Below, in pieces: positions 2,954 through 55,145 of a stretch of 64,000 nt of DNA (position 1 is the stretch's first letter; each line of letters begins with the position of its first letter). The stretch spans positions 1 through 64,000 of IMG/VR virus record IMGVR_UViG_3300048442_000818; one strand, written 5' to 3'. Below the pieces are notes generated by a model. That model had not been told where the DNA came from. It saw nothing but the letters and a program-made list of their open reading frames with translations, and searched no databases. The position numbers were made by a program, and so were the translations under genes. This DNA comes from a virus.

Positions 2954-2958
2954 ATTAT

Positions 2959-3033
2959 TGGCATGTAGCTCAGAGGTAGAGCAGGTGGCTGTTAACCACC
3001 CGGTCGTAGGTTCGATCCCTACCGTGCCAGCCA
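2959..3033 (+). tRNA. tRNA-Asn (GTT)
   Basis: Acceptor TGGCATG pairs with CGTGCCA, anticodon stem GGTGG/CCACC with loop CTGTTAA gives GTT. The discriminator is G and CCA is encoded. Confidence 0.95.
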
Positions 3034-3039
3034 GTTAAT

Positions 3040-3124
3040 GCGACTGTGGCGGAATTGGTAGACGCACTAGATTTAGGTTCTAGCGCCCTATGGCGTGGGA
3101 GTTCAAGTCTCCCCAGTCGTACCA
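3040..3124 (+). tRNA. tRNA-Leu (TAG)
   Basis: Acceptor GCGACTG pairs with CAGTCGT. Anticodon stem CTAGA/TCTAG with loop TTTAGGT gives TAG. A long variable arm (class II tRNA) supports leucine. CCA is encoded. Confidence 0.95.
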
Positions 3125-3129
3125 TTTAT

Positions 3130-3206
3130 GTTCCTGTAACTCAGTGGATTAGAGTAGTAGCCTTCTAAGCTATTTGTCGTAGGTTCAAATCCTACCAGGA
3201 ACGCCA
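3130..3206 (+). tRNA. tRNA-Arg (TCT)
   Basis: Acceptor GTTCCTG pairs with CAGGAAC. Anticodon loop CTTCTAA gives TCT, which reads AGA/AGG codons. CCA is encoded. The anticodon stem contains one G-T pair. Confidence 0.92.
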
Positions 3207-3208
3207 CT

Positions 3209-3282
3209 TTCTCCAGAACAGTATTACAAATGTTTTAATACTATTCAGTATCATAAAATATATTGAATGCTGTTCTGGAGAA
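3209..3282 (+). repeat. inverted repeat / possible three-way junction inside the tRNA cluster
   Basis: A 13-bp perfect inverted repeat (3209-3221 with 3270-3282) encloses two smaller hairpins: TATTA/TAATA (3222-3240) and ATTCA/TGAAT (3243-3268). It fills the whole gap between tRNA-Arg and the second tRNA-Leu. It is not itself a tRNA: the base stem is too long and there is no T loop. Confidence 0.7.
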
Positions 3283-3290
3283 CTTATTCA

Positions 3291-3377
3291 GCGAGTATGG
3301 TGAAATTGGTAGACACAAGAGACTTAAAATCTCTCGGCCTTATGGCTGTGCCGGTTCGAGTCCGGCTACTCGCACCA
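3291..3377 (+). tRNA. tRNA-Leu (TAA)
   Basis: Acceptor GCGAGTA pairs with TACTCGC. Anticodon stem AGAGA/TCTCT with loop CTTAAAA gives TAA. Class II variable arm. CCA is encoded. Confidence 0.95.
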
Positions 3378-3416
3378 ATCTCTGTAGTTATCTTTTAAAA
3401 CAATCCTGAGGTGCAA

Positions 3417-5408
3417 ATGAATAATTTCAAACCTTTTGCAGAAGCCCTGTGTCTGCATTTTGATAGCATGTCTGAAAATGAGTTGTACTGTGTAGATATT
3501 CCAGGACAAACCATTTGGGAAATGTATCTTGAAGCATTCCCTGAAGGCACTAATCCCATTTATCGCGTTCGTACTGAACATGATGGATCATATGATCGAT
3601 CTGTAATTCGTAAGATTGGTAATCTCGTTGTTATTAATGAAGATGGTAGTTTTACTACTATCTGGGATATCCCCAATCTCTCTTACCCTTATAAAGAAGT
3701 TTGTGCAACTCTTGCTTTTATTATTAAGAGTGCAGCAATCAATAATGTGTTTCGTATTAAAGAGCGTATGTTGGGTTATACCCAAACTACTGAAAAATTG
3801 GAAGATGGTTCCAACCATATCTGGCACCACTTTCATACAAAAATTGCCAATAAACACTATGCTCAATCCCCTGCTGAAGCTCAAGGCAGTTTGCAAACAA
3901 CCGCTTCAGTATTGGAGCGTGGTCTGCATGAAATTAGCATTCCTGCTCTCGATACTATTCTTGATCTTATCGAAAGAGGATCATTATACCGTGGTGATGA
4001 GTTCAAAAATCAAATTGTTAATTTCCGTTCTTTGAAAAAACAATTTGATTACTGTAGTACAACTCAGGCTATTAGTATTATTGTTTGGAAAAACGTGCAT
4101 AATCCTGTTGCTCGTTTTCGTAACACAGTGATTGGTACTCTTGCGGTTGATTTGTCTAATCAAATTGATCTTGAACAAGCTGTACGTTCTTTTGAACAAA
4201 AAGTAGCACCCACTAATTACAAACGTCCAACCGCATTGATCACACAAGGTATGATCGATAATGCTGTTAAGAAGATCGAGGAACTTGATCTTGAAAGTTC
4301 ATTGCAGCGTCGTCTTGCTAAACTGTCTGATGTATCAGTAAATGATGTACTTTGGGTTGGTAACAACGCTAAAGACAAAATGAAAGACGATGGTTTAACT
4401 GAACTGCTACAAAGTGAGGTTAAAAGTAACGTCACTAAACAGGTTAATGAAAATATTTCCATTGAAGATTTTGTTAAGCATGTACTGCCTGTAACACAGT
4501 CAATGGAAGTGTTGATGAAGAATCGTCTTCAGAGCAACCTGATGACCCTCACAGCACCTGCTAATGAAGACGCACGTAACATCTTCAAATGGTCTAACCC
4601 CTTTGCATGGTCCTACAACGGCAACATCACCGATGCCATTAAGGAGAAGGTGAAATTAGCCGGTGGTAATGTCAAAGCTGACATTCGGGTATCTTTGGCT
4701 TGGTTCAATTACGATGACCTTGATATCCACTGTCATGGTCCCATGGGTCATGTTTACTTTGGATCCCGTAAAGGAATCCTTGATGTAGACATGAATGCTG
4801 GTGGTCGTGAAAGTCGTGAACCAGTAGAAAATCTTGCTTTTGATAATCCTCAAGATGGTCACTACAAAATTGAGGTGAATCAATATTCTCAACGTGAAGT
4901 ATGTGATATCGGCTTCACAATACAGTTTGTTTCTGACGGTATAAATGAACAGTATCATTACGATGGTATCGTCAAAAATAGAGTGAGTGTGCTGGAATTT
5001 TTTGTCAAGAACGGCAAAATTGTAGATCATAAAGTTTTGGATAAAAATCTCAAAACTGAAGGTACTCCTGAAAATATCTGGGGTATTCAGACAGAAACAT
5101 TTGTTCCTGTTAGTACTCTCATGCTATCTCCAAATTATTGGAATGGTGAGACTGTTGGTAACAAACATTGGTTCTTCCTTTTGGAAGGTTGTAAAACCAG
5201 TGAACCAGTACGTGGGATTTACAATGAGTTTTTGCATTCAGAACTGGATGAATACCGTAAAGTATTCGAGGTACTGGGTAATAAAACTAAATGTGAACCT
5301 GTGGATGAGCAAATGTCCGGTCTTGGATTCAGTTCCACTAAACGCGAAGAAGTAACTGTTCGTGTTAAAGGAACAAAACTCAATAAAACTTATCTCGTGA
5401 AATTCTAA
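3417..5408 (+). CDS. 663-aa protein with YfaP-like (DUF2135-like) beta domain
   Basis: I chose the ATG at 3417 because TGAGG lies just upstream; an in-frame GTG at 3411 is the alternative. The N-terminal 370 residues are mostly helical and unrecognised. Near residues 420-500 there is a compact beta domain with the signature DLDIHCHGPMGHVYFG, then GILDVDMNAGG and EPVENLAF, the pattern of YfaP/DUF2135 domains (DLDLHV..P.G, LD.D.N.G, PENI). The last 130 residues are unassigned. No signal peptide is seen, so it probably acts in the cytoplasm. Its position near the ATPase/VWA operon suggests, but does not prove, a related function. Confidence 0.75.
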   Translation: MNNFKPFAEALCLHFDSMSENELYCVDIPGQTIWEMYLEAFPEGTNPIYRVRTEHDGSYDRSVIRKIGNLVVINEDGSFTTIWDIPNLSYPYKEVCATLAFIIKSAAINNVFRIKERMLGYTQTTEKLEDGSNHIWHHFHTKIANKHYAQSPAEAQGSLQTTASVLERGLHEISIPALDTILDLIERGSLYRGDEFKNQIVNFRSLKKQFDYCSTTQAISIIVWKNVHNPVARFRNTVIGTLAVDLSNQIDLEQAVRSFEQKVAPTNYKRPTALITQGMIDNAVKKIEELDLESSLQRRLAKLSDVSVNDVLWVGNNAKDKMKDDGLTELLQSEVKSNVTKQVNENISIEDFVKHVLPVTQSMEVLMKNRLQSNLMTLTAPANEDARNIFKWSNPFAWSYNGNITDAIKEKVKLAGGNVKADIRVSLAWFNYDDLDIHCHGPMGHVYFGSRKGILDVDMNAGGRESREPVENLAFDNPQDGHYKIEVNQYSQREVCDIGFTIQFVSDGINEQYHYDGIVKNRVSVLEFFVKNGKIVDHKVLDKNLKTEGTPENIWGIQTETFVPVSTLMLSPNYWNGETVGNKHWFFLLEGCKTSEPVRGIYNEFLHSELDEYRKVFEVLGNKTKCEPVDEQMSGLGFSSTKREEVTVRVKGTKLNKTYLVKF

Positions 5409-26998: not shown

Positions 26999-29900
26999 TT
27001 AGTCCATCAGACTATACCAGGGGTTCAGTTCCCAACTGTTCCAACCCATTTCAGGACCAATTGAGTAACCAAGACTACCATCCATAGCTTGAGTGAAGAT
27101 GTTATCATTTACTGGTAAACCAACACTGCTGGGTGCAGGTAGAGTTGATGCTACTAAGAAATGTAGAGGATTGTTTCTAAGAGTACTTAAGGCAATCTTA
27201 GCAATACGGATCTTGTAGTTGTAAAACCACAGTAGACCCATATTCTCCATATACCCTCTCCAACGTCCCGGTAAGCGATCATAGTTCGCAAACTCGGTAG
27301 TTACCCTACCCAAAGCATCAGCACTACTCATTTTCTTACGTTGAGTTAAATCATCGTAGAGTACTGCTTTAGCTACAAAGTCACTGTACTGTACAGACTT
27401 TTGAAGAGCCTGGAACAGTGGAGTGTCTTTCATGATTAAACCATACCGGGCAGCCGTTCTGAGTTTGGGGGGCAGCTTATCAATCTGCTTACTGAAGTAG
27501 CTGTACAGATTACCAGTAGTCAGTTCCAGATCTTCAGAAGACATACCGATATCCGCAATAGTGCTGAATTCCCCTGCCTGGATCAAAGGCCAGATACTCA
27601 GACGCTGATTAGAGTCAGTGATGGATCGGATCTCAGCACGCAGTTTACGCTCCCGTACAAAGTCTTGGCCTACCGCCCTGAGTTCAGCTTCCAAATCAAT
27701 CTGACGTAAGCGGTTCTTCACATAAGCATTGATCTCTACCAGCTTAGCTGGATACCCACGTTTGATATCCCGTACCGGTACACCTCTACTCACCAACTGG
27801 TAAGTGGTTGAAATGAAGTTATACACCGGTACTACCACCGATCTAACAATAATGTTAGTACGAATATCAGACATTATATTTTGTGTGAATTGTTCACCTT
27901 TCACTAGAGTTTTATAAGCATCTGGTCCCATTAAACCAACAAAGAAGTTTCTCCAAGCTTCATTAGTTAATGGATCTCTGTTGTTGCTATTGGTCCAGAA
28001 ATCACCAACAGAAGGGTTACGATAACCTACTGCATCTTCTAGCATATCTTTACGAACCCAGAATTCATCCCCAAATTTGCGATGAATATAATCTCTAGTA
28101 TCGTCAGAGAATAAATTCACAGCATCTCTTTGTACTGGGCTAAGATTAGAACCAAAAAGGTTCACATACTCGTTGATTTTATCACGGCTAATTTTCATAT
28201 CAGCCGTATACATATCATGGAGTCTATCAATAGAAGTCTCGTTGAAAATTTGAGACATCTTTTCTTCAACCTGACGACCTCGCCAAACACCTAACATCCG
28301 GCTTAGGTCTTGTGATTCAGGTTCCAAACGGGCTTTCTGTGCTGGATCCACTGACTGCTCGTAAGCAAAGATTTGGCCTCTCTCATCGAATACAGGCATC
28401 AGGTTCTCAACATCACCCTGTTCTTGAGACAGTCTGCGAGTGATTCGGGTCACATCAGCACGCCCAAAGATACGACCTGCCACCAGATCAGAGGTGAGAC
28501 CTGTATGGGGATCAACTCCTGAAGCCGTACGGTTGATGTTCTGAATAAAGCCTTGAGCATAAGCAGTACGACCAGAAATAGGAGTAAAGTAGTAGCTCTT
28601 GCTTGAGCGTCGGTTATCCACATTACTACCGTTATACGGACCCATGTTCACATAACCACGGATCCGCATATTGGACTCCTGGGCATTCTCTTCAATACGT
28701 AGAGATGCACCAGGGCTTTGCTCAGCCGGTATATGGCCTTTGTAGTGGTTCACCAGGGCCTTACCCTTGTTTGCCTTACGAAGCTCTGTTCTACGCTGTC
28801 CTTGAAGGTATCCCAGCACGAAGTTGAGACCATTGCTCTCATCCTGAACCAAGGAGGCCATAGCCTGCTTATCCTGGGTGGATAAACCATCCACAGCGTA
28901 CAGAGTGATCAGTTGATCAATAGACCGTTGTATGGAGCTGTCAGGTGCCTTCCAGCCTGCTTGTCTGGATTCACCAAATAGGTTTGAGATCGCATAAGCA
29001 TTACGAAGCAGACTGACCCCTGTTTTACCGGTGTTCATGAAAGTGGCAAGTTGCTTCATCTTTCTTTGGTAAATAGGCCAGTGAGCAGTATCACTCTGCT
29101 GAATGAGTCCTTCCAGATCGTTGATCAAAGCATCCAGTGAAGTTTGGCTCTGGAATAGATCCACGATATCTTGCGCAGGCATTGTTTCCATCAGGGCTGC
29201 CAGATCCGTTTTACCCATAGAACGGTACATTGAGGACCATTCTTCCTGAGACAGCTTTCGACTGAATTTGTTATGCAGCACTCGTGGAATTTCATCTCTA
29301 AAGTTCTGACGTAATTGCTGCACTGCTGCCCTGACAGTTTTGATCATGTCATAGACTTGAGCATTGCCTTCGGTACGATCTACAAGGTTGTTCACCAAAT
29401 CATAGAACGGCTTCCAGATCCGACCACGGTTCATTAATCCCATCAGTTCTTGGGATACCATGTCGGCTCGTTCTTCAGAGGCAATGGACGAAGCCAGCTT
29501 TAGGAAGTTACCTGCGAGTTTAGTTGGAAGACTCTGGGATTCCTGTCCTTTGGTTCCAAGTTTGTAACCGGTATCTGCAAGGGTTTGCATACCGTTTACC
29601 ATCCAATCGTTTACAGCGTCATATTTATTACCAATCTTATCTGTTACCTCGCGGATAGTGGTCTGCTCATCCAAAGCAGCTTTGGTAATCTGATTCATCA
29701 AATTATCCATAGCCGCTTTGACATTGGCAGCATCACGCTGACCTGACATACGATTTGACAGTGAATCTGATGCAGTGACCAATAAGTTATCCAAAGCAGC
29801 ATCCATAGTTTTTTGATCTGACTTAACAGATTTTGGAACCTGCATATTTGCTAAGATATCTCTAAACTCTTGGTTCACAGTGGATAGTGCAATGAACACA

Positions 29901-32900
29901 GGTAACAGAGTAGTGCGCCCATATGCATCTGTTTGACGATTTACTCGACCCAAAATAGTGTTGTATTTTTCTTGCGCATAATAGCGATCAGCATCAGGGT
30001 TACGAGAATTCTCTGGCATAAAGCTATCAACACTCAGGTTTTTAGTTACATGAGTGTATAGCTCCTGCATTTGAGCCAAAGCGTTAGGATCCAATTTAGC
30101 TTCAGTAGCCAGAGTAGCTACGATTGTTTTGAATGTGGTGGCTTCATTGATATCCATATTGAAGTGAGCACTTACTGCATCATTCAGAGCATCAATGGCT
30201 ACTTGGCCTGATTCTGAAAGGAGGCGGTTCTGCTGCACTTCGCGTTCGGTATCGGGATACTCATCTAAGAGATCAACAATCTTGGTTTGAAGAGCATTAC
30301 GGATATCTCGTAAGCGGGTATTATTCCCATAGGTTGCATGGAATAACGTACCTTCCTGGAATACAGAAGATAGATTTGGCTGAGTACGAATAATGATACC
30401 GGTGTTGAATTGTAGATTACTCAACACATCATCAGCGTGTTTAGGAGCGTGCTTACGACCCCAAACTAATTTCTTGATTTCTTGCCACAGATCTTTAGCA
30501 AGTTGAACTAACTTGTTCGTTTTTGTTTTCTTCAGTCGATTAGTGATCTGTTCGTTAGTAAGACCCCATGCCATAAACTCGTTAAGGGCTTTAGCCTGTG
30601 AGGCAGCAGGATCCATATTCAGATCATTCTGAGCACTCTCAATAGCAGCTCTAGCATTATCAAATGCCATGTACATTTCGTTAGGTAAACCACTTTCCAG
30701 ATCCATGGAAAGAAAATCATTGAGCATGATCTCCATTCGCTCAATAGCCCTTCTTGCTTCTGGATCCACTTTTTCACCACGATAATATGAAAGCAGTGTT
30801 TCATAGGTAGAAGCGTGAACCATTTCGTGGACCAAGGTTTCAGTGGTTGGGTTGATCAGATAAATCACCCGTTCCGCTACTGAAATCACACCGTGAGCCG
30901 TAGCATCTCCCGTGTTAATTGAACTCAAGCCAGTTTCACGTTGGTATGCAGCAATTTGCTCAGGTGTACCAGCAATGATTTTGTAATCTTTGGTTCCCAG
31001 ATTACGAATGATTTGAGCATAGATATCTCTTTGTGGTTGGGTCATGTTGACCAACCGACCGAGATTTTTCAGGGCTGTCCAGCTAATTACACGTACACCT
31101 GAAGCTTTATGTTCACGGCCCACTTTCTGAATATCTTCAGACATGCCATCAGCTACAGGAGCTTCTTCTGTAGCTTGCTGTTTGCCTGAAATTTTCTCTT
31201 GATAACGAGCATTCAATTCATCAGCAATTTGTTCAGGTGTCATCTGTGCATCAAGAGTTACAGTTCCATTCACATAAGGTGAGGCAGCACCAGCCATATG
31301 ATCAATAGAATGAAGAACATCACTCATTACCTGACGACGAATAGAGACACTATCTTCCGCTTGCTGAAGAAATTTACCTTTCCTATCCAACATATCCAAG
31401 ATAGCTTGAGAAGTAGCTACTTCTTCTTCTGGATCCAGATAAGGAAACAAGGCACGGGTAAAATCTCTATGCATCGGTGTATCTTTCACCTGCATATCAT
31501 TCTTTAACATATCTTCGATTAGATCTTTTGATTTCATAAATTGTTTATAGGAATCATTGACTGCCTTAAACGGATTACCATTGATCCAGGAGTCATACAC
31601 AGCCTTATTGGCTTTTTCACTGTATTCAGTGATTTTATCCAAAGGCATGTTGATACCATCAAAGATATCAAGGGTATTGTTCATTTCAGTATCCAGAGAA
31701 GTTCTCTGGATCATGTTAGCGTCACCCATACCAATGGTTAGGAACGGAATACCCGCAACACCAGCATTGGCTGGGGCATAAGCGTAAGCATCCGTTCTCA
31801 TGGTTCCATCAAGAGCACGACTGAATGCTGGACCACCTTCAAGCATCTGAGTCTTAGCAATTAGAAATACTTGACCTTGTGTTTGAACCAAAGGAGATAC
31901 TTTGAATATTTCTTTGTAGATTGCAGTGAAGTCTTTACGAGAAAGGAAATCACCAGGACGGTAGGTAGGATCATTTTTCTTACGATCCTCTAACCGTTCA
32001 TTAATCAATCTACGGAACAGATACTCCAAAACAATAGACTGTGATTGGGTTGCTTGACGGATTTTATCAACAGACCTCATAAGAGGAGCACCAACTGTAT
32101 CTTCAATACCAAACCGCAGAGGTCTAACAAAACCTTCAAGCATGTTTTGTTTGATACTTTGGATCTGTTCTGGTGTAAAAGTGAACTCTACTGGATCCGC
32201 AGACTGACGTGTGCGATCTGAAGGTTCTAAGAAGTATTCACCACTTCTCTGGTTATAGCGTATTTTATTGGCTAACAGGGTATTTAAAGCATCAACAAAC
32301 TGACGACCCTGTTTTTCAGGATTTGGTTCATTAGGGAATAGAGCTTCACCCAAGGTAATTTTAGGATAAGCTTCTCTTGCCTGGGCAAATTGAGACATTT
32401 TACTGTAAATGTCTTTCACCATTTGGGATGTAAGATTACCAGCAATACCTGAGATTGAAGAACCATACACCAAAATGGTAAGTGGGTTCTTGGCAATACC
32501 ACGGTCAAGCTCAAAGGATCCTGGCTCACCTAATTCAACATCACCGTTGTACTTAACACCCGGTAATGTGACATTCATCAATGTCATCAATGCCTTAACG
32601 TTACCTAGTAGCCCATCAGATTTCTTATTACGACCCAGTACATTGATAAGGGTACGTAGATGCTTATCTGAATTGATCGTAGCTGTTTTGTACAAATCAA
32701 CAGGATCTCTTTGGCTGAGTTCAGCCATAGTTTGGCGAGTGCCGATAGAGACACCACCTTTAGAAATATTCTGGATCCACTCAGGAGTAAACCGGCCTGG
32801 GGTCATTAACATCATAGCGTTGATTGGGCCATCGGTTACACCATCCCCCTCAAGATATATTGAGGTACGGAAAGATTCTCTCTCACCTAACGGAGTTTGT

Positions 32901-35900
32901 GTTAACCGTGCGTATTCCATAAGAGCATTCAAAGCTACAGGCGTAACATCAATACCCGCAGAATCAAGATGACCCTTCAGAATATAAGCATCCAGAGGAT
33001 TTACCTCAGTAGTTATTAATGAGTTGGTATCAGTGCCACTTACCCAATCGTTGATCAGATCCAGAGCAGGGACCAAAGGACCAGTAAGTAAGTTTTGTAC
33101 TTGCTCAACTGTATCTTCTAAAAGTTGATTATGAACTTTAATATCTAATGCTTGACCAATAGAAAGTAAGAAATGATTGTAAATAGTACTGTTTTCATTA
33201 GACAAATCAACAGTACTCCACGTAGGTAGAATAGCCTCACGAACTGCTTTATCTGATTGAGGGTTGTAAGCACCCAGCATCTGCATACGCCCAACACGGG
33301 AAATATTATAAGCGTACCGAATTGGCATCTCAGAAACCGATACACCTTCTGTTTCAGCACGGTTAACCATACGATCAACCGTATTAAATAGGTGATTGTA
33401 TGCAGAAGTAATAGTGCGATTTTTACCTTCAATAGATTTAGCATGGTTTATATTAAGGGTTTGATTATCACCCGCTGATTCACCAAGCAGAGTTAACATA
33501 CCCTCTCTACCGAAAGCAGAGTATAGATTTACCATTGGAATATTCAGATAAAAAGGTACTTTTTGTTTGTTCTCAATCGCTTCTTTTTGTTTTATAGTGT
33601 TAGCTACTTCTGGGTTATTCATCTGACGCTGGGCAACAGGAATTTCCTGATCACCAATGTAGAACACTTCTTCTGGACTAATTAGAACAGCATCATCAAT
33701 AGCAGTTGGGTAAGCATGAATTGGATTACCTTCCATTGGTGATACAAGATACCGATTAGGTGTTTTATCTGAATCCAGACCAAAGGATTTCAGGTCAACG
33801 GTAGTGACACCCATCATACCCGTATCAATAAAAGCCCTGATCATTTCAGCAGCTACTGCTTCAGGAATACCCTCAGAATAAGCAATGTCCGCATCAGCAG
33901 TAGCCGTTACACCCCAGTATTCTTTGATCTTGTTAGCAAGAGATCGCTTCACCTGCTCAAGACTCATACCCTCATTGAGAAGGCGTATGACCTCATAAGG
34001 TACGATTTCAGCGTCCACACCAGTGATAGCAGAGATGTCTGAATCATCCATTGGAGTGTGGTACTGGTTAGATGTCAGTAACCACTGAATAGCTGCTAAA
34101 GCAGCAGTCTCTAACAATTCTGGGTTGTATTGGTAACCTTCTGGTGTTTCATCAACAATATTAAGTGCTTTACCTCTAGCCCATCTTTGAATATCAGCAT
34201 CAGTTTCTAATACATCACGGATCGTTCTTTTATCTTTATTTGAAGACCATGAATAACGACTATTTAAGAAACGATCTAAATTAGCAGACATAGCTGACAT
34301 AAGACCACCGACAGATTGAACACTTTTAATCTGTGCAGCAGTAAGATCATTAGTTTCACTCTTTATCAGGTATTCACTTGCTTTTGGATCATTGCGTAAC
34401 AAAGTTTGATATTCAGATGCGATCTCAGGAGTTAAAGTGTATTTAGGGGTATTACCCATAAATTCAATCAAACTCCCGGATGAAGATAAAGCATCTTGAA
34501 CCAAGAGGATGGGGGATCCTTCTTGACCGATTAATCGAGTAGGTGCTTCTTCTGTGTTCGGTAATCTGAACACTTTTTTGAAGAAGTTTTCACCGCGAGT
34601 AAGTAGATTTGGGTATAGGGAATCCAAACCTGTAGTGGGGGTATCTACCGGTTCAGCCTCAGCAGAAACAGGTTCTGGGGTGGATTCCTCTATAGTGGTA
34701 TCCACTTCTTCCTGGGGCTGTGTTTGAACAGGCTCTGGATCAGGTTGAGTTTCAGTAACTGGCTCAGGTTCTGGCTGTGCTTCTTGTTCTTGCACCTCTG
34801 GTTCAGGTTCAGCCGGTTTATTGATCTCAGCAAACGCCTCCGCAGGGGTAAGCTTACGGATATCAGCATCTGTTAAGCCACGCTCTCTTAATTGAGCACG
34901 CATAGCTTGCGTGATCATTACGGGTACGCTGGCTGTAGTGGTTTTTTGTGTTGGCGTATCTTTTGTGATTTGCTGTACCTGATCGGGGTTAAATACTACA
35001 ACCTCCTCGTAACGGAACTCAGGGTCTGCATAAAGTAAGCCGTCATACCCTTCCGTTATTAAGGCATCACGTTGTTCTGGTGTGATGCCTGTAATCACTA
35101 TGGGATCATTATCTTTAACCAAATAAGGATTTTGAATGTTTACCCGGAAAGTGAGTGTTACTCCCCCTTCTTGCATTCCTTGGGAATATGCAATGTTTTT
35201 TGTAGTGTAAAACCCAACGAGAGTACCCGTGTTGTTTCCTATAAAATGCACAGTAGAAGGTCGTTCACGTTCAGCAATCACTTTAAAATTTTCTGCTTCT
35301 ACTGCCCTTGTTGTGTGGTAAGTCAACCCTTTTACTACGCTATCCGGAAAAATGTGATCGTATGCAGAAGTATCAGAAATAATCTCTGATTTTGGTTCAG
35401 CTTTTTTTAATTCAGAATTAGAGGTTGACTTATTTTGTTGATTTTTCGTAAATATTTCACGTAATCTTTCAGCATTAGCAACAGCAGTAGATTTACGACG
35501 TTCAAGATCAGATTTTATCTGCTCATACCTACTATCATTTTTATCTACACCGGGATTTATATTGAGATTACGTGCATATCTTTCTGCCCTAAGTACTATA
35601 TATTCTGCAAGATCAAAACGATCATTATTAATTGCTGTATTTAGTTGTGCAAAAGTTTCTGGGTTTGAGGGATCAATTACTGGAGCAACTACCGCATCAT
35701 ATAGAGTTTTTTCTATTTCTGGGCTGTTTTGTCCTGGCGCACGATCACCCCTTATATATATTTGTTCATTCTTTTCAAAATCTAATTGTGCTTCGAGAGT
35801 CTCAATACGTAGTTCTGACCCTGACTCAAGAGTAGATTCTGCCTGTTCTTGCTGTTGTTCTGGCTCTGCTGTTACTTCAGCTTGTCTTTGTCCAGGTACA

Positions 35901-38749
35901 ACACGCTCACCGGAACGGAAAGCATCAACAACTTCTTGTGGTGTGCCTTCTAATGCTGGATCTAAAAATAGGGGTTCAAATTTCTCATTACCAAGCTCTG
36001 GGAATGCATCAACTAAACCATTGTAAATATTCACAAGAGTTTCTTGCTCAGCTTGTACTGACTTAACCAGTTCTACTGATTTAGCTGATTTCCAGTTAAC
36101 ATACATGCCTTTGCTATCTGCTTTAGGGTTATTAGATGACAATAACCACTCACGGGTAACAGGTACCAATGACATATACGGAACAGCTTCAGCATTAGGA
36201 TTGCCGTTATCAAAGTGTTCATTAGCTGCTCTAACTTTGTTTTGCATGTGTTGTACAAACAAACCAAAGTCTTCCAGACGAGCACTAGCAATATCAGGAC
36301 GATTACCACGAACAGCCTCAACAATACCTTTGGTATGCTGTAAAGCTGATCTGGCATTCTCCCTTCTTGGATCATTACTTGCTACGATCTGACTAGAAAC
36401 TACGTCTTTAGCGGTTTGCAGACCACTATCAGCAATTTTCTTCTCAAGCTTTTGACGCTCACGAAGTAAGTCATAACTAACCTGTAATGCTTGACGTTGT
36501 GAGTTAGTTAACTCTAAACGACCCTCTTCAGCGTGCTTAAGAATACCTTCAATCACTTCAGGGTTGCCCTGGTCAGGCATTAGTTCAGCCATGGCAACGG
36601 CTGTACGGACACGGCGTTGACCTTCTTCCGTGTTGACGTTTCTTTCCGTAACAGGCTTCAGTGATTTAGTTACAGCACCACTTTTAGCGGATGCATCTAA
36701 AGCACGCATAGCTCTCATTACAGAAGCATTCTTTTCCAGATCCCAGATTAACCGGTCATATCGAAGCAATGTATCTCTGGCTTCGTGATCCTCAGGGATT
36801 TTTTCCATGATAGCCGGTTCAGCTTCTTTCAGGTCCAGAAGTGGCTGCATTAGCTCCTGTAGCACTGCTGCGGCTTGGATCTGTTCTGGGCCTTCGGGTA
36901 GGCGGGCTACTTCACGAGCTACTTCCTGAATTGCTTCAACACGGTTTGTGGCCGTGGCTGTCACTTCACGAAGATTTTCTGGCACAGATTCAGGGTCAAA
37001 CTGCATAGACTGAACCAAGGAAGAAACGTAAGCATTGCCTTCTGCACGCTCTTCTGGAGTGGCTTCTACGGTGTTGATCGTATCAGACAGGTCTTGTGCT
37101 GTTTCAGCCGTCTGTTGTGCTGTAGCGGCTGCCTGCTCTCTCATGGCTTCATCACCAACAGGTGATTGCTGCTGTACCTGCTGACGAATTTTGTCACCTC
37201 TTTCAACGATAGCGTTGAAAGCAGGCTTACCTGCTTCAATAGCAGAAGAGATAGCCTTACGAGTTATTTTGTAAGTAGGTTCAGCAACAGTTCTAGTTGC
37301 TTGGGCAGCAGCACCAGGAGATCTAATAGCACCGGCGGAAGTTACACCGTAAGCAGCACCTTCACCGACTTGACGGCCCACATCAGCAGATAATGACTGC
37401 TCAGGGTCAACATATTCCTGACTAGCTAAATTCTCGGCCACACCGCTGACAGCGCCCTGTAATGCTTCTTCTCCAGGTTCTCTAAGTAGAACATCACCTG
37501 CTAACTGTCGAGCGCCAACAGCACGGAAAGGTGCTTCACCGATTCGTGAGATTGTACCTAAGCCTGCTGCAATAGGAGCTGTTCGGGTAGCAGCATAAAG
37601 ACCAGCTTCATTAGCCAAATGTGTTTTGGCTTGTTCCTGGGCTGTTGCTTCATCCATACCCTGGTCAAGAAAGTTTTGCTTCAGTTCACGATAAGGTTGT
37701 GATGTCTGTTCCAGTTGTTCTACCGGAGTAGACATAATCTCGGTATTGACCTGTTGGTAGACACCACCACCTTCCATAGCACCAATAGCAGCAGGCCAAG
37801 CAGAAGCACTGGCTAAATCACGAGTACGATCTGCTACCCTGGCAGCCGACATAGTGTCAGTTGCCCTGTCCAATTCAGCAGCTAAACGGGTAGAAACACT
37901 TCCTGCCACACCACCTGTGACAGCCCGACCAATGGCTTTAAGACCTTTGGTAATGACACCACCACCAACAATGGAACCAACACCCTCAGATGTACCTGAA
38001 AGCAACATGGTTGGGTCCGACACAGCATTGGCAATGGCATCAACAGCATCACTACCGACACGTTTAAGACCAGATACTAGTTCACCATCACCGGCTGCTA
38101 AATTAGCTTGATACTCAGCTTCATTATCTCTTTCAGCTAAATTTTGACGAGCTTCGTAATTACGACGAGCAGCACTTAACTGTTCTGATTGAGTGCCTTG
38201 TACCCATTCATTAGCGCTATTCATACCGTCAGTAATAGAAGCACCTAATTCAGCATCCAGTAAACCACCGCCCACTGCGGCAATACCACCAATGCTATTG
38301 CCCACACCAGCGGCTATCCCAGAAGCAGTGTCCCACAGTGCTTCACCAGTTGTACGGTCATAACCGGCTCTATCACGGCTTACCTCGGAAGAAGCAGCAG
38401 AAAACTGTCTAATCAATTCTGGTGCATCAGCCCCGTACTTCAAATATAACGAGGGGGTATCTAGGGTTCTGAGATCTTCCTCTAATTCACCCATGCTGGC
38501 AGCACCCATTTGGTTACCACGGCCAGCAGCAGCTTGATACATATCGGGGTTTATTTGGGGTAGTACACTACTGATTTGATCTTGCTTTTGGGCTGAAGCC
38601 TGGGTAATAGAATTCTTCTTTTCTCCTAGAGCACGTTGGAAAGCATTGTTCATAATCCCCCGTTCATCCACAGATAGTGGAGTTGCTCCTTGAGTTGGGG
38701 TAGTAGAAGACGTAACTGCTTGATCCAAGAGGGTCTGAAAATCTGCCAT
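26999..38749 (-). CDS. virion RNA polymerase, N4 gp50-like, about 3,916 aa
   Basis: Start chosen at the ATG at 38749 (MADFQTLLDQAV). The central part carries N4 virion polymerase motifs: SRVGR (Arg1821, the TxxGR motif), EGDGVTDGP (Asp1969, motif A), RGIAKNPLTILVYG (Arg2083, Lys2087, Tyr2095, motif B) and DIFDG (Asp2364, motif C). Spacings A to B (114) and B-Lys to C (277) are close to N4 (107 and 281). Other parts: Ala/Gly-rich N-terminus with hydrophobic patches; an ADP-ribosyltransferase-like domain (about 1128-1260); a Pro/Glu linker (about 1306-1376); and HEMVH (His2641-His2645). By analogy it is packaged, ejected with the DNA and transcribes early genes from hairpin promoters. Confidence 0.95.
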   Translation of the reverse strand: MADFQTLLDQAVTSSTTPTQGATPLSVDERGIMNNAFQRALGEKKNSITQASAQKQDQISSVLPQINPDMYQAAAGRGNQMGAASMGELEEDLRTLDTPSLYLKYGADAPELIRQFSAASSEVSRDRAGYDRTTGEALWDTASGIAAGVGNSIGGIAAVGGGLLDAELGASITDGMNSANEWVQGTQSEQLSAARRNYEARQNLAERDNEAEYQANLAAGDGELVSGLKRVGSDAVDAIANAVSDPTMLLSGTSEGVGSIVGGGVITKGLKAIGRAVTGGVAGSVSTRLAAELDRATDTMSAARVADRTRDLASASAWPAAIGAMEGGGVYQQVNTEIMSTPVEQLEQTSQPYRELKQNFLDQGMDEATAQEQAKTHLANEAGLYAATRTAPIAAGLGTISRIGEAPFRAVGARQLAGDVLLREPGEEALQGAVSGVAENLASQEYVDPEQSLSADVGRQVGEGAAYGVTSAGAIRSPGAAAQATRTVAEPTYKITRKAISSAIEAGKPAFNAIVERGDKIRQQVQQQSPVGDEAMREQAAATAQQTAETAQDLSDTINTVEATPEERAEGNAYVSSLVQSMQFDPESVPENLREVTATATNRVEAIQEVAREVARLPEGPEQIQAAAVLQELMQPLLDLKEAEPAIMEKIPEDHEARDTLLRYDRLIWDLEKNASVMRAMRALDASAKSGAVTKSLKPVTERNVNTEEGQRRVRTAVAMAELMPDQGNPEVIEGILKHAEEGRLELTNSQRQALQVSYDLLRERQKLEKKIADSGLQTAKDVVSSQIVASNDPRRENARSALQHTKGIVEAVRGNRPDIASARLEDFGLFVQHMQNKVRAANEHFDNGNPNAEAVPYMSLVPVTREWLLSSNNPKADSKGMYVNWKSAKSVELVKSVQAEQETLVNIYNGLVDAFPELGNEKFEPLFLDPALEGTPQEVVDAFRSGERVVPGQRQAEVTAEPEQQQEQAESTLESGSELRIETLEAQLDFEKNEQIYIRGDRAPGQNSPEIEKTLYDAVVAPVIDPSNPETFAQLNTAINNDRFDLAEYIVLRAERYARNLNINPGVDKNDSRYEQIKSDLERRKSTAVANAERLREIFTKNQQNKSTSNSELKKAEPKSEIISDTSAYDHIFPDSVVKGLTYHTTRAVEAENFKVIAERERPSTVHFIGNNTGTLVGFYTTKNIAYSQGMQEGGVTLTFRVNIQNPYLVKDNDPIVITGITPEQRDALITEGYDGLLYADPEFRYEEVVVFNPDQVQQITKDTPTQKTTTASVPVMITQAMRAQLRERGLTDADIRKLTPAEAFAEINKPAEPEPEVQEQEAQPEPEPVTETQPDPEPVQTQPQEEVDTTIEESTPEPVSAEAEPVDTPTTGLDSLYPNLLTRGENFFKKVFRLPNTEEAPTRLIGQEGSPILLVQDALSSSGSLIEFMGNTPKYTLTPEIASEYQTLLRNDPKASEYLIKSETNDLTAAQIKSVQSVGGLMSAMSANLDRFLNSRYSWSSNKDKRTIRDVLETDADIQRWARGKALNIVDETPEGYQYNPELLETAALAAIQWLLTSNQYHTPMDDSDISAITGVDAEIVPYEVIRLLNEGMSLEQVKRSLANKIKEYWGVTATADADIAYSEGIPEAVAAEMIRAFIDTGMMGVTTVDLKSFGLDSDKTPNRYLVSPMEGNPIHAYPTAIDDAVLISPEEVFYIGDQEIPVAQRQMNNPEVANTIKQKEAIENKQKVPFYLNIPMVNLYSAFGREGMLTLLGESAGDNQTLNINHAKSIEGKNRTITSAYNHLFNTVDRMVNRAETEGVSVSEMPIRYAYNISRVGRMQMLGAYNPQSDKAVREAILPTWSTVDLSNENSTIYNHFLLSIGQALDIKVHNQLLEDTVEQVQNLLTGPLVPALDLINDWVSGTDTNSLITTEVNPLDAYILKGHLDSAGIDVTPVALNALMEYARLTQTPLGERESFRTSIYLEGDGVTDGPINAMMLMTPGRFTPEWIQNISKGGVSIGTRQTMAELSQRDPVDLYKTATINSDKHLRTLINVLGRNKKSDGLLGNVKALMTLMNVTLPGVKYNGDVELGEPGSFELDRGIAKNPLTILVYGSSISGIAGNLTSQMVKDIYSKMSQFAQAREAYPKITLGEALFPNEPNPEKQGRQFVDALNTLLANKIRYNQRSGEYFLEPSDRTRQSADPVEFTFTPEQIQSIKQNMLEGFVRPLRFGIEDTVGAPLMRSVDKIRQATQSQSIVLEYLFRRLINERLEDRKKNDPTYRPGDFLSRKDFTAIYKEIFKVSPLVQTQGQVFLIAKTQMLEGGPAFSRALDGTMRTDAYAYAPANAGVAGIPFLTIGMGDANMIQRTSLDTEMNNTLDIFDGINMPLDKITEYSEKANKAVYDSWINGNPFKAVNDSYKQFMKSKDLIEDMLKNDMQVKDTPMHRDFTRALFPYLDPEEEVATSQAILDMLDRKGKFLQQAEDSVSIRRQVMSDVLHSIDHMAGAASPYVNGTVTLDAQMTPEQIADELNARYQEKISGKQQATEEAPVADGMSEDIQKVGREHKASGVRVISWTALKNLGRLVNMTQPQRDIYAQIIRNLGTKDYKIIAGTPEQIAAYQRETGLSSINTGDATAHGVISVAERVIYLINPTTETLVHEMVHASTYETLLSYYRGEKVDPEARRAIERMEIMLNDFLSMDLESGLPNEMYMAFDNARAAIESAQNDLNMDPAASQAKALNEFMAWGLTNEQITNRLKKTKTNKLVQLAKDLWQEIKKLVWGRKHAPKHADDVLSNLQFNTGIIIRTQPNLSSVFQEGTLFHATYGNNTRLRDIRNALQTKIVDLLDEYPDTEREVQQNRLLSESGQVAIDALNDAVSAHFNMDINEATTFKTIVATLATEAKLDPNALAQMQELYTHVTKNLSVDSFMPENSRNPDADRYYAQEKYNTILGRVNRQTDAYGRTTLLPVFIALSTVNQEFRDILANMQVPKSVKSDQKTMDAALDNLLVTASDSLSNRMSGQRDAANVKAAMDNLMNQITKAALDEQTTIREVTDKIGNKYDAVNDWMVNGMQTLADTGYKLGTKGQESQSLPTKLAGNFLKLASSIASEERADMVSQELMGLMNRGRIWKPFYDLVNNLVDRTEGNAQVYDMIKTVRAAVQQLRQNFRDEIPRVLHNKFSRKLSQEEWSSMYRSMGKTDLAALMETMPAQDIVDLFQSQTSLDALINDLEGLIQQSDTAHWPIYQRKMKQLATFMNTGKTGVSLLRNAYAISNLFGESRQAGWKAPDSSIQRSIDQLITLYAVDGLSTQDKQAMASLVQDESNGLNFVLGYLQGQRRTELRKANKGKALVNHYKGHIPAEQSPGASLRIEENAQESNMRIRGYVNMGPYNGSNVDNRRSSKSYYFTPISGRTAYAQGFIQNINRTASGVDPHTGLTSDLVAGRIFGRADVTRITRRLSQEQGDVENLMPVFDERGQIFAYEQSVDPAQKARLEPESQDLSRMLGVWRGRQVEEKMSQIFNETSIDRLHDMYTADMKISRDKINEYVNLFGSNLSPVQRDAVNLFSDDTRDYIHRKFGDEFWVRKDMLEDAVGYRNPSVGDFWTNSNNRDPLTNEAWRNFFVGLMGPDAYKTLVKGEQFTQNIMSDIRTNIIVRSVVVPVYNFISTTYQLVSRGVPVRDIKRGYPAKLVEINAYVKNRLRQIDLEAELRAVGQDFVRERKLRAEIRSITDSNQRLSIWPLIQAGEFSTIADIGMSSEDLELTTGNLYSYFSKQIDKLPPKLRTAARYGLIMKDTPLFQALQKSVQYSDFVAKAVLYDDLTQRKKMSSADALGRVTTEFANYDRLPGRWRGYMENMGLLWFYNYKIRIAKIALSTLRNNPLHFLVASTLPAPSSVGLPVNDNIFTQAMDGSLGYSIGPEMGWNSWELNPWYSLMD

Positions 38750-38862: not shown

Positions 38863-40728
38863 CTACTCAATCATAAACCCTCCAGGCATATGCCGCATCA
38901 TACTATTTAATCGTTCTGTGCGGGTAGGCTCTTCACGGGTTTCCACTTCTTCTGGTTGTGTCACTGTTCTTGTTGGCATTAACGTGTCACTAGAAGCAGC
39001 ACCTTGCTGTAGCGTCCTAAGTCTCTGTTCTGCAATATCAAGTTGAGCTTTAGCCTGCCTCACTGAACCAGCTAAACCAGGACGGCTTCGGGCTGCATTT
39101 ACCAGAGTTTGGTATTCTTGATAAACCGCATTGTACTGCTGTTGGGCAGCTTCTACCTGCTGACTGATTGCTGCAACAGTCTCGTTGGCATCTTGGACTT
39201 GTGGTCCAGCACCTTGAAGATATCGATCAATTTGTTCAGAAAAACGCTCATCATTTATTCTTCGATCATTGCCAAGGTTGGGGGTCCGTCCTGTGATAGC
39301 TTGCCCTATTCCACCAAGACCTATTTCACCAAGAAATCCCAAACGACCAATATAATCGAGTACACCACCAATACCAGTTTCTGTTGGCATACCGCTGTTA
39401 AGTAACATTCTACCAATTTCTTTAGGTGGTATTTGACCACCATTTTCCTGATAAACTCTATTAATAGTTCTTTCTAGGAATTCTCCTGAAGTACCAGCAA
39501 AAGGACTATTTTCACCTGATAATTGTTGTGCAACATCATAAGGTGAAGCTGTATCAGGTAGTTCATCCAAAATAGGTGCAGAAAAGTTACCTGTTCTAAT
39601 TTGGTTTTCTGAAACACGTTCATTCAGTCTACGCTGTAGAGCAGAAGTCCCGAGGTTATTAGCAATGGTTTGCTGTTGTTTTTGTTGGCTCCAATCATCG
39701 ACGTTACCTGGACCAGCGTTATAGGCAGCCAAGGCTTTATCAACGTCCCCATCGTAGCGTTCAAGCATAGCACCCAGGTAATCACGTCCTACCCGTGCAA
39801 GCTCTTCTGGTGAGTTGTTTTCAGCCGGTCTGACGCCATAACCGGGATCTGTAGCAGTAGCAGGCATGACTTGCATCTCGCCTTGGGCACGCTCACCAGT
39901 ACGGGTAACTGGACCCTGAATTAAACTACCATCAGGGTTATATCGACGGTTACCTGATTCTTGTTGTAGTACATGAGGTACCAAAGCTTCTAGTTTTTCT
40001 TGGTTACTTTTACCAGATAAATCACCAGCAGCTTGTGTAATATTAGCCACATAGTTACGAGTTTCCTCAAAGGGGATACTTTGAACGAAACTGGAACCAA
40101 CGGGGGAAGTTGCAGGGTTAGAGCCACCAGAAGCTGCACTGGAACCAGAAGAACCAGTAACCGGACCCATTACGTTTCCATAACCGTTACCTTCCAGAAG
40201 GGCGGTAATACGGTTAGCTTGACTTGGGGTGTACTGACCAGATTGAAGACCTTGAGCGATGATGGCATTGGCTGCTTCAGCATTAGGCGCTCTCTGGACA
40301 ATATCCATATAAGCAGCTTCAGCCGCAGCATTTGTTTCATTAGCCTTACGCTCACGATCACGAGTGTATTGGGTCCAATCCTGATTTGATTGTGTAATAT
40401 CACGTTGATCTTGAGCAGTAGCACGCTGTAGCAACGTATCAGCACGGCGATCCGTTGACCGTAGTGCTTCAAGTGAAGCTCTGTTATTTAGACCATCAAC
40501 TAGTGATCCATTCTGTAGTGCTGCTCTATAGGCTTCTGGATCCTGAATAGAATTAGCACGTTGAATCAAAGCACGATCTGCTGCATCAGTTTGAGCACCG
40601 GTATAAGTATCAACACCACTTTGGGCACTGGATACAGCACGATTTAATAGATCAGCCGCAGTACGAGTACCGTAAATAGCTGACCCAAAACTGGGTGCTG
40701 AAACATTACGCCACGTTAGAGTAGCCAT
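38863..40728 (-). CDS. internal virion protein with lytic transglycosylase (SLT) domain
   Basis: 621 residues, first in the ejection-protein group (MATLTWRNVSAPSFG is the usual start of N4 gp51-type proteins). Residues about 246-345 form a soluble lytic transglycosylase domain: VLQQESGN with catalytic Glu257, GEMQVMPATA, and LAAYNAGPGNVDDW. The region 60-180 is helical, and 480-600 is a Gln/Ala-rich coiled coil. It should be carried in the virion and open the peptidoglycan during DNA and polymerase ejection. RBS AAGGAG on the minus strand. Confidence 0.85.
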   Translation of the reverse strand: MATLTWRNVSAPSFGSAIYGTRTAADLLNRAVSSAQSGVDTYTGAQTDAADRALIQRANSIQDPEAYRAALQNGSLVDGLNNRASLEALRSTDRRADTLLQRATAQDQRDITQSNQDWTQYTRDRERKANETNAAAEAAYMDIVQRAPNAEAANAIIAQGLQSGQYTPSQANRITALLEGNGYGNVMGPVTGSSGSSAASGGSNPATSPVGSSFVQSIPFEETRNYVANITQAAGDLSGKSNQEKLEALVPHVLQQESGNRRYNPDGSLIQGPVTRTGERAQGEMQVMPATATDPGYGVRPAENNSPEELARVGRDYLGAMLERYDGDVDKALAAYNAGPGNVDDWSQQKQQQTIANNLGTSALQRRLNERVSENQIRTGNFSAPILDELPDTASPYDVAQQLSGENSPFAGTSGEFLERTINRVYQENGGQIPPKEIGRMLLNSGMPTETGIGGVLDYIGRLGFLGEIGLGGIGQAITGRTPNLGNDRRINDERFSEQIDRYLQGAGPQVQDANETVAAISQQVEAAQQQYNAVYQEYQTLVNAARSRPGLAGSVRQAKAQLDIAEQRLRTLQQGAASSDTLMPTRTVTQPEEVETREEPTRTERLNSMMRHMPGGFMIE

Positions 40729-52226: not shown

Positions 52227-55145
52227 CTATTCAGATTCATCTGGGTTAGCGTAAACCACTAGATTCCCCGATGTTGCATAGAATGTTTGGGTATCGCTAC
52301 TGTAATTTAATTGGGAGCGTCTTGGAACATAAGTGTAATCACTCAATACCCAGGATTCTCCAGGCAGCTTCATTGCTAGATTTGTTGGGGAAGAGTAAGT
52401 AGATGCCCACATAACTTGGTCATTTGCACCAATATCACTGATACCCCAAGAATCTTCTGTTAAATCCCATAATAATTGTTCAAACTGCCAATCTTGACCT
52501 AATAAATTGCAACTAACAACTTTACGGTTAGTAGTTAAAATATAGATTCTACCATCAAATTGTACCGTCTTGTTAAAATTTAAACCTGCCAAATCACCTG
52601 TTAACTCAGGAAGTATTGTTACATTTTTACTTGACGGATCGTAAATATAACGCCCACCACCTAATACTAAATAAGTGTTATCACTTAATTTATGTGAACA
52701 ATTTAGTCTACCCTGGTTAACTAACTCACTTGGTCCGTAGAACAATTCCCACTTGTCTACTTGAGAACTATCTGGTGATACTGTTCCAAATAAATTAATA
52801 CCATTCATTGTTCTACAGAACAGTAATCTATCTCCTGTTGTATCATATGGGATAATAACAGGGAATTGTGTTGTAGAACCTCTTAGAAAATCATCATAGG
52901 GAAAACTCACATCACCATTGGGATTTTGAGCATATAAACCAATGCCGGCAGTTATATATAAACTATCCCCAACACTGATTATATCTCCATTATTTGTTAA
53001 TGAGTCTGTGAATTCACCAAATACATTTATATTGGTGTACTCATCCCAAACATCTAAAGCAGTGTTACTAATAAAATGAGTTGGTGATATAGCATCTTCT
53101 TTTAGTATTACTCTATTATCTGATAGTACTTTATAACGACCAGGTTCAAACTCACGTTCACCACCAAACGGAGTAGGTATTTTTGGTATAATTGAGTTAT
53201 TGGTGACAAGTTCCCAAACAAGGAAATTATTTTCCCAACTGCTTGAGGAAATTCCTGTTGATTTAAACAGATAAAGTTCCCCATCTGAATCTTTTGTTTG
53301 GGTCATATAGGCAGTATCACCTATAATAAAGGTAAAGGAGTTACCCATATATTCTGGGTATGGTGGACCACTTATAGGTGAAACTCCTTCACCACCATTC
53401 CAGTTAACAAAGTCTGAAGTACTGTAGACATAACTAGTATCAGGGAAGTAGAAATAATCCCCATAACAAAAAATACCATATACGAATTTTGCAACTCTGT
53501 GCCAAGATAAACCATCACTGGTGTAGAAAACAGATGCCCGTAATTGAGATGTATCCGTTGTAGTGACAAATGCGGTATAGGATCCATTACCAACAATATT
53601 ACCTAATACTTCAAATTCAAAACCACTGGTGTTAAAACCATTATCAAATGAATTTGCTTTGGTCCAGGTATCACCATTATCATTGCTTACAAGAAATCTT
53701 TCTGCATAGTAAGCATTATCCTGACTACCAGTAAATTTATTATGTACAGCATATATTTTGTTACCAAATACATGAAAATTAAAGTTACTGCTAATAGTTG
53801 AATCTATATCTGATACATATACTTCAGTATAAGAATTATTTTTTAGTTTTAAAAATACAATTCTAATATCGTCTTCAGATATAAACTTACTAGCAGTGAT
53901 TAATAAACCACCGTCATTAGTTCCTGTACCACTACCTAGAGAATATGGATGCTCTGTGCAGGCCCCATTAACCGGTTCATAGATTGAACCGTTTAATTTG
54001 TATGTATTTTCTCCAGAGACAAAAAGCTCATTATTTGCTTTTTGAAAGTTAGTCAGTCTAGCTGTATCAACAGTAAAAGCCTCTGATCTGATACTAATTG
54101 TTATTGGGTTCTCTTCACCAAAATTCAAAGTATCTTTAAAAGGTGCTCTATTTTTTGTTGAATCTTTATTTACTAGGTAATGTACTTTACCTGCATAAGA
54201 AATAGTATCTAAAATTTCTTCATTACCTAAATCTACATCCAACACTTTAATCCATTCTGGAATGTCTGGATGAGATTCATATGTTGCTGTGTCAGGGTAG
54301 CTATAACTGAACTCATCAGGTAGCTGAGTTAATTTAGCAGTAAAATCAATGTTACGGGGTTGTCCATAATCAATAGCAGTAATATTGGTAGTGCCCATAT
54401 TAGGTAAATATTCAGTGATACTACTTAAAATAGCTACACTTGTTAATAAATTACCATCTACATAAAATAAAACTGAATTTGTTGATGGTTTAAATTGTAA
54501 TGCAAAAACAGTTGTTAGGGGTACTTCAATTCGGCCAATACCACCTGAACCATCTGCATACATCAACTGGATAATGCTTGTGTCCTCTGAAGACACAGTT
54601 AAGTAAGCAACACCAGCACCAATCTCTGTCAGGGTCCAAGTGAAATTAGCACCCGATAGTGTATTAAATTGGAATTCTATGACTGAATTTGGGGGTGTTT
54701 CTGCGACAAGATCTGGGTACTCAACCATACCGCCCACACCCACCCCAAAAGTGCTTGCTGGAGCAGATGCTGAACCAGTAACAGTGAACCCCCAGTCTGT
54801 TTGTTCTACTGAACTGTTTTCCCCAATAGCCTGCCAAATGATTGGATATTCCAGAGAAGGTTTTATATAGGCAGGGATACTTACAACACCCTCACCATCA
54901 GAAATATTTGCATTTTCTGGTGATGTTAATAGCACGCTAAATTGCGTATCTACTGTGGCAGGTGATTGATCCACTATTGGAATGAAAATATCCTTTTCAG
55001 TTTCTCCTGGGCGAAACGTAAGTACCCCGGACTTCACTTCATAGAAATCCGGGGCAATGGCTGTACCGTCTTGAGTGGTATATTCCACTGTAACTGTTTC
55101 AGGAGTCATCTCACTCAAAACAACAGTGAACCGTGCTTGTTTCAT
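52227..55145 (-). CDS. Calx-beta / Asp-box propeller adhesin, 972 aa
   Basis: Residues 1-95 form a Calx-beta domain (VTVEYTTQDGTAIAPDFYEV, then GVLTFRPGETEKDIFIPIVD). Residues 100-290 resemble a lectin-like beta sandwich. From about 300 to the end there are repeated blades with Asp-box-like motifs (SNDNGDTWTKA, TSDGLSWHRVA, TSDFVNWNGG), indicating one or more beta propellers. This fits a surface-binding tail protein. In N4 this region encodes the tail sheath gp65, but the sequence here is different. It probably recognises a surface glycan. Confidence 0.72.
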   Translation of the reverse strand: MKQARFTVVLSEMTPETVTVEYTTQDGTAIAPDFYEVKSGVLTFRPGETEKDIFIPIVDQSPATVDTQFSVLLTSPENANISDGEGVVSIPAYIKPSLEYPIIWQAIGENSSVEQTDWGFTVTGSASAPASTFGVGVGGMVEYPDLVAETPPNSVIEFQFNTLSGANFTWTLTEIGAGVAYLTVSSEDTSIIQLMYADGSGGIGRIEVPLTTVFALQFKPSTNSVLFYVDGNLLTSVAILSSITEYLPNMGTTNITAIDYGQPRNIDFTAKLTQLPDEFSYSYPDTATYESHPDIPEWIKVLDVDLGNEEILDTISYAGKVHYLVNKDSTKNRAPFKDTLNFGEENPITISIRSEAFTVDTARLTNFQKANNELFVSGENTYKLNGSIYEPVNGACTEHPYSLGSGTGTNDGGLLITASKFISEDDIRIVFLKLKNNSYTEVYVSDIDSTISSNFNFHVFGNKIYAVHNKFTGSQDNAYYAERFLVSNDNGDTWTKANSFDNGFNTSGFEFEVLGNIVGNGSYTAFVTTTDTSQLRASVFYTSDGLSWHRVAKFVYGIFCYGDYFYFPDTSYVYSTSDFVNWNGGEGVSPISGPPYPEYMGNSFTFIIGDTAYMTQTKDSDGELYLFKSTGISSSSWENNFLVWELVTNNSIIPKIPTPFGGEREFEPGRYKVLSDNRVILKEDAISPTHFISNTALDVWDEYTNINVFGEFTDSLTNNGDIISVGDSLYITAGIGLYAQNPNGDVSFPYDDFLRGSTTQFPVIIPYDTTGDRLLFCRTMNGINLFGTVSPDSSQVDKWELFYGPSELVNQGRLNCSHKLSDNTYLVLGGGRYIYDPSSKNVTILPELTGDLAGLNFNKTVQFDGRIYILTTNRKVVSCNLLGQDWQFEQLLWDLTEDSWGISDIGANDQVMWASTYSSPTNLAMKLPGESWVLSDYTYVPRRSQLNYSSDTQTFYATSGNLVVYANPDESE

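What the first reader, a model, noticed from the sequence alone, without database searches (positions are those of the whole stretch)
34975..35365. ADP-ribosyltransferase-like domain inside the ejected polymerase protein
Residues about 1128-1260 read as an ART of the H-Y-E type found in polyvalent proteins: YHTTR (His1145), VGFYTTKN (Tyr1181), ITEGYDGLL, then RYEEVVVFNPDQV (Glu1248/1249). The polypeptide is expected to enter the cell with the DNA, so this could modify host proteins at time zero, as T4 Alt does, using a polymerase as carrier. I know of no described N4-type vRNAP with such a domain.
Basis: partly seen in the sequence, partly recalled or inferred. Interest (0 to 1): 0.85.

Follow-up and report, generated by a model that had tools for sequence, protein, structure and literature searches.

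The report
ADP-ribosyltransferase inside a phage's injected polymerase
A phage related to coliphage N4 carries, inside the giant RNA polymerase that such phages inject with their DNA, a small domain that by sequence and predicted fold is a probably working ADP-ribosyltransferase; this kind of fusion was described in marine relatives in 2017, so it is a new example rather than a new kind, but it sits at a site where related phages swap several different enzyme domains.

Summary
Residues ~1131-1275 of the 3916-aa N4-type virion RNA polymerase (vRNAP; 26999-38749, minus) form an ADP-ribosyltransferase (ART) domain with His1145, Tyr1181 and Glu1249 in place. Pfam ART-PolyVal matches below its curated cut-off (23.2 vs 31.2 bits). 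A profile built from 50 phage polyvalent ARTs finds it at E=1e-6, above all 300 shuffles. AlphaFold2 (pLDDT 80.6), on an alignment made mostly of polyvalent ARTs, gives a PARP-like fold whose best solved matches are PARPs.

The novelty claim does not hold. Iyer et al. 2017 (PMC5512222) described an ART fused to an N4-type vRNAP in Roseovarius Plymouth podovirus 1 and proposed the same T4-Alt-like role. I find it in four roseophage vRNAPs, in one metagenomic schitovirus at the same site (40% identical), and in a third virus on a separate protein near a divergent N4-type polymerase.

The ART fills an insertion in the flexible linker between the membrane-anchoring N-terminal domain and the polymerase. 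In relatives that linker holds nothing, or acetyltransferase-like, DprA/SLOG-like or M90 peptidase-like domains, and differs between close relatives: an effector cargo slot. Most likely the ART enters with the polymerase and ADP-ribosylates host macromolecules; activity and target are untested.

The parts
26999..38749 (-). vRNAP gene, N4 gp50-like, 3916 aa from ATG 38749 (the open frame extends to a TTG at 38836)
   Evidence: Pfam vRNAP domains; PHROG 2206 virion RNA polymerase, 2682 bits; 41% identity to N4 vRNAP over residues 1309-3914
35900..38749 (-). N-terminal domain (residues 1-950), counterpart of the membrane-inserting ejection domain of N4 vRNAP
   Evidence: aligned to N4 and others at 25-40% identity; role from PMC12633501
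34826..35821 (-). cargo insertion, residues 977-1308: about 332 residues where N4 has about 4
   Evidence: blastp: window 44-976 = N4 30-952 and window 1309-3914 = N4 956-3510 (locus L002)
34925..35359 (-). ART domain, residues 1131-1275 (Pfam span 1144-1267 = 34949-35320)
35315..35317 (-). His1145, predicted NAD-binding residue of strand 1
   Evidence: 45/45 H in alignment A7
35207..35209 (-). Tyr1181, predicted NAD-binding residue (GFYTT)
   Evidence: Y or F in 41/45
35042..35044 (-). Asp1236 of the GYDG motif
   Evidence: D in 42/45
35003..35005 (-). Glu1249, predicted catalytic glutamate (RYEEVVVF)
   Evidence: E in 22/45; kept in L051/L109 and L108
34430..34924 (-). linker, residues 1276-1440, partly Pro/Glu-rich, joining the ART to the polymerase
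   Evidence: sequence directly
31292..33589 (-). polymerase core (Pfam vRNAP domains, residues 1721-2486), catalytic residues retained
30815..30829 (-). HEMVH (residues 2641-2645), zincin-type motif of the C-terminal region, as in N4
   Evidence: PMC12633501 describes HExxH in the N4 C1 domain

Best explanation
The domain is an H-Y-E (PARP-like) mono-ADP-ribosyltransferase related to the polyvalent-protein ARTs, carried as cargo in the flexible linker between the membrane-anchoring N-terminal domain and the polymerase of the injected vRNAP. A few copies per virion (4 +/- 1 in N4) pass through the tail in an extended form. The ART refolds on the cytoplasmic side next to the polymerase, uses host NAD+, and ADP-ribosylates one or more host macromolecules before any phage gene is expressed. 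Shown here: the domain's presence, family, predicted fold, conserved triad and position. Inferred: delivery with the vRNAP (from N4), catalytic activity (from the triad), action on host targets (from T4 Alt and the polyvalent-protein model); the target is unknown.
For: ART detection above shuffled and reversed controls; profile-profile 98.9%; AF2 fold matching PARPs and exotoxin A domain III in the PDB, and phage PolyVal ARTs plus a Roseobacter phage vRNAP in BFVD. Triad conserved across the family and in the nearest relatives L051 (40% identity, pairwise E 6e-35) and L108 (46-47%). Same inter-domain site in L051 and, roughly, in the roseophages. Both closest relatives lie in or near an N4-type polymerase, and no bacterial relative was found. 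N4 vRNAP is ejected and membrane-anchored through its N-terminal domain, with a flexible ~100-residue linker to the polymerase (PMC12633501). The same role was proposed before (PMC5512222).
Against: I found no report of activity for any vRNAP-linked ART. Pfam scores are under the curated cut-off for the window (23.2 bits) and L051 (29.6). The fold was predicted from an alignment made mostly of polyvalent ARTs, so it is not independent of the sequence match; with 3 sequences the prediction failed (pLDDT 32). PDB matches are modest (best E 3e-3, TM 0.44). Most schitoviruses lack the domain, so it is dispensable for the polymerase's job. Glu1249 is not universal in the family.
Confidence: 0.6

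Rival explanations
1. Active ART, but the purpose is counter-defence or modification of small molecules, RNA or DNA (for example blocking an NAD-dependent or other host defence), not reprogramming of host proteins as by Alt.
For: The slot elsewhere holds other conflict-type domains: DprA/SLOG-like, GNAT-like, M90 peptidase. RPP1 also encodes a NADAR protein, an ADP-ribose-processing family.
Against: Biochemically characterised phage ARTs of the common families modify proteins or nucleic acids, mostly proteins (PMC9503650); no Macro or NADAR match in the window's own record.
Confidence: 0.17
2. Active ART that modifies the phage's own ejection or polymerase proteins (auto-ADP-ribosylation) to tune assembly, refolding or transcription.
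For: It is tethered next to the polymerase in a flexible linker, and only a few copies enter (PMC12633501).
Against: Slot content differs between closely related polymerases, so the polymerase does not depend on it; L108 carries the ART on a separate protein.
Confidence: 0.1
3. Catalytically dead ART fold kept as a spacer or ligand-binding module.
For: The Glu position is variable in the family (22/45) and the aligned crAss-like cr55_1 sequence lacks the His and Glu; low Pfam scores suggest divergence.
Against: Window, L051 and L108 all keep H, Y and E together with the flanking motifs at 40-47% identity, which suggests selection on the active site.
Confidence: 0.1
4. Chance resemblance in a variable linker.
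For: Sub-threshold Pfam score.
Confidence: 0.02

Closest known systems
ART-bearing vRNAPs of roseophages (Roseovarius Plymouth podovirus 1, EE36phi1, V17, DS-1410Ws-06; Schitoviridae, Rhodovirinae); the first is described in PMC5512222
   Same: ART of the polyvalent group inserted between the N-terminal domain and the polymerase of an N4-type vRNAP
   Different: only ~22-23% identity in the ART; the acidic position is E or D in a different local context; RPP1 also has an M90-type peptidase match in the same slot; their polymerases are distant (~25-27% identity)
vRNAP of IMGVR_UViG_3300048852_000007 (L051) and ART protein of IMGVR_UViG_3300017527_000170 (L108)
   Same: closest ARTs, 40-47% identity, triad kept; L051 at the same slot
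   Different: L108 carries it near the end of a separate 1311-aa protein, with a divergent N4-type polymerase on another reading frame
ART-PolyVal (PF18760); Tox-ART-HYD2 / 'N4-like' ART family of the HY-[EDQ] clade
   Same: predicted fold, H and Y, GYDG, E followed by a hydrophobic strand and a conserved Q
   Different: below the Pfam cut-off; lacks the WFGDW...SKVVDENGEP lead-in of the polyvalent ARTs gathered here
T4 Alt
   Same: virion-carried ART acting at the start of infection (function only, by analogy)
   Different: R-S-E clade, separate protein, host RNA polymerase among its targets (PMC5512222)

Membership tests
N4-type virion RNA polymerase | vRNAP core domains with T7-like catalytic residues, N-terminal and C-terminal regions | tested here: met
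N4-type virion RNA polymerase | packaged and ejected with the DNA | not testable with these tools
   known for N4 (PMC12633501); inferred here
ART superfamily, H-Y-E (PARP-like) clade | His, Tyr and Glu in the three motif strands | tested here: met
ART superfamily, H-Y-E (PARP-like) clade | ART fold | tested here: met
   caveat: the alignment used was mostly family-derived and PDB scores are modest
ART superfamily, H-Y-E (PARP-like) clade | NAD+-dependent transferase activity | not testable with these tools
   no experiment
ART-PolyVal (PF18760) | score at or above the Pfam gathering cut-off (31.2 bits) | tested here: not met
   23.2 bits in a 217-aa piece
ART-PolyVal (PF18760) | relationship by profile comparison with polyvalent ARTs | tested here: met
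   hhalign 98.9%; own HMM E 1e-6
T4 Alt family | R-S-E active site | tested here: not met
   H-Y-E found

The most novel reading that the evidence does not exclude
The flexible linker between the membrane-anchoring domain and the polymerase of N4-type vRNAPs is a general cargo slot, in which schitoviruses swap injected effector domains (ART, acetyltransferase, DprA/SLOG-like, M90 peptidase and unnamed ones) faster than the polymerase itself evolves, making the polymerase an interchangeable effector-delivery chassis.
Probability: 0.6. Interest if true: 0.6.

Novelty: new member of a known kind. Interest (0 to 1): 0.42.

Why it matters
It adds a divergent H-Y-E ART, outside the marine roseophages, to the known set of ART-bearing vRNAPs, and places it in the linker that the 2025 N4 structure work describes as flexible. 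If the slot reading is right, one can read off, phage by phage, which effectors may be delivered at time zero, and the tolerance of the linker for inserts could be tested directly in N4 and laboratory E. coli.

Tried and rejected
Single-protein scans with the ART found no relative in viral contigs and only weak crAss-like or plasmid matches by tblastn. L051 was found through its polymerase, L108 through a two-sequence ART alignment; wider ART alignments found only the same two. Two genome-contig scans found no bacterial relative. PDB sequence searches gave nothing usable. AlphaFold2 with 3 sequences failed and was replaced by a 45-sequence alignment. GC content of the ART segment (0.416) is within the vRNAP range (0.432, sd 0.041), so it gives no sign of recent transfer. 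NCBIfam gave nothing. BLASTP of the L108 proteins against the window N-terminal domain and polymerase was not significant; only the profile comparison showed the polymerase. Searches failed because of a wrong frame. A helical-hairpin motif seen by eye in several slots was not significant in the window.

Full report
What is there. The minus-strand frame 26999-38749 encodes a 3916-residue N4-type virion RNA polymerase: four Pfam vRNAP domains between residues 1721 and 2486, PHROG 2206 at 2682 bits, and the catalytic residues invariant in a ten-sequence alignment (D1969, R2083, K2087, Y2095, D2343). The whole record is a 73,830-base virus. Against N4, window residues 44-976 align with 30-952 and 1309-3914 with 956-3510, so about 332 residues stand where N4 has about four.

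The ART domain. Inside that insertion, residues 1144-1267 match Pfam ART-PolyVal, but below its curated cut-off. I built an HMM from 50 polyvalent ARTs found in IMG/VR with two crAss-like sequences as query. It finds the domain in the window vRNAP (24.7 bits, E 1e-6), in L051, in four roseophages and in the L108 protein, and in no other vRNAP at a meaningful score; the best of 300 shuffled window proteins reached 10.6 bits. Profile-profile comparison with the three closest sequences gave 98.9%. In the 45-sequence alignment His1145 is invariant, Tyr1181 is Y or F in 41 rows, and Glu1249 is E in 22. AlphaFold2 on that alignment gave pLDDT 80.6, and Foldseek returned PARP10, PARP13, tankyrases, PARP1 and exotoxin A domain III from the PDB, and PolyVal ARTs and a Roseobacter phage vRNAP from BFVD. 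The PDB matches are modest (best E 3e-3, TM 0.44), and the alignment was mostly family-derived, so the fold result supports rather than independently proves the assignment.

Relatives. The closest ARTs are at the same slot in L051 (40% identity, E 6e-35) and, at 46-47%, near the end of a separate 1311-residue protein in L108. About 5 kb downstream of that protein, L108 has a reading frame that hhalign matches to the vRNAP core at 97.6%, with the motif A and motif B regions recognisable. No bacterial relative was found. On a tree of 89 vRNAP cores the ART label needs four changes, at least three of them forced by well-supported branches, so the domain was gained, exchanged or lost repeatedly.

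A cargo slot. The stretch between the conserved N-terminal domain and the polymerase ranges from 27 to about 650 residues in relatives; for the distant roseophages the anchors lie further out, so their lengths are not directly comparable. Pfam finds ART in L051 (below cut-off), L022 and L005; M90 peptidase in L005 and L015; weak, sub-cut-off GNAT matches in L011 (Xanthomonas phage PB119) and L080; and a sub-cut-off DprA-type match in L067. Close pairs differ: L028 and L033 are 89% identical over polymerase and C-terminus, yet the slot is 96 versus 329 residues; PB119 and L037 are 81% identical over the same part and the slot is 195 versus 83 residues, the longer one holding the GNAT-like stretch. 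In N4 this stretch is a flexible ~100-residue linker (907-1007) between a membrane-inserting N-terminal domain and the polymerase (PMC12633501).

Prior knowledge. PMC5512222 (2017) describes an ART fused to the N4-like vRNAP of Roseovarius Plymouth podovirus 1, calls it the prototype of polyvalent ARTs, and suggests an Alt-like role; it also notes ART, lysozyme and PBECR associations of N4-like RNAPs. That paper gives the prototype's active site as H, Y and D; here E1249 is the best-supported third residue, and D1236 is also conserved. PMC9503650 (2022) lists an 'N4-like' ART family. The finding is therefore a new, divergent member of a described kind. What I did not find described is the slot as a fast-exchanging site, though my literature search covered only open-licence papers.

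How it most likely works. By analogy with N4, a few vRNAP copies are ejected, the N-terminal domain stays at the inner membrane, and the polymerase refolds in the cytoplasm; an ART in the linker would then sit at the cytoplasmic face next to it, with access to host NAD+. What it modifies is unknown. Delivery, activity and target are inference.

Noticed in passing
slots of L011 (7528-8112), L080 (5826-7028), L067 (5088-7031), L015 (7288-8388): Other effector-like domains in the same vRNAP slot: GNAT-like, DprA/SLOG-like and M90 peptidase-like.
   Followed up: partly
L052 6033-7127 (G7C) and L033 666-1652: An unnamed domain (SPWL..DG..G...DHIS) shared by eye between the G7C slot and the L033 slot; no Pfam match.
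   Followed up: no
L108 4782-8717 and 14037-16430: Apparent split system: ART on one 1311-aa protein, divergent N4-type polymerase on a separate frame.
   Followed up: partly
L114 1-6465 (crAss-like cr85_1): An ART with YHGT and FEEIVV motifs near the end of a protein annotated as an RNA-polymerase subunit: a possible parallel in a different phage polymerase system.
   Followed up: partly
NC_049345.1 1223-1624: Roseovarius Plymouth podovirus 1 also encodes a NADAR-family protein.
   Followed up: no
38863-40728: The ejection-type protein just upstream of the vRNAP carries an SLT transglycosylase domain, E 6.5e-14; [quoted passage not shown]
   Followed up: no
52227-55145: Protein with a Calx-beta domain at its N terminus, E 7e-15.
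   Followed up: no
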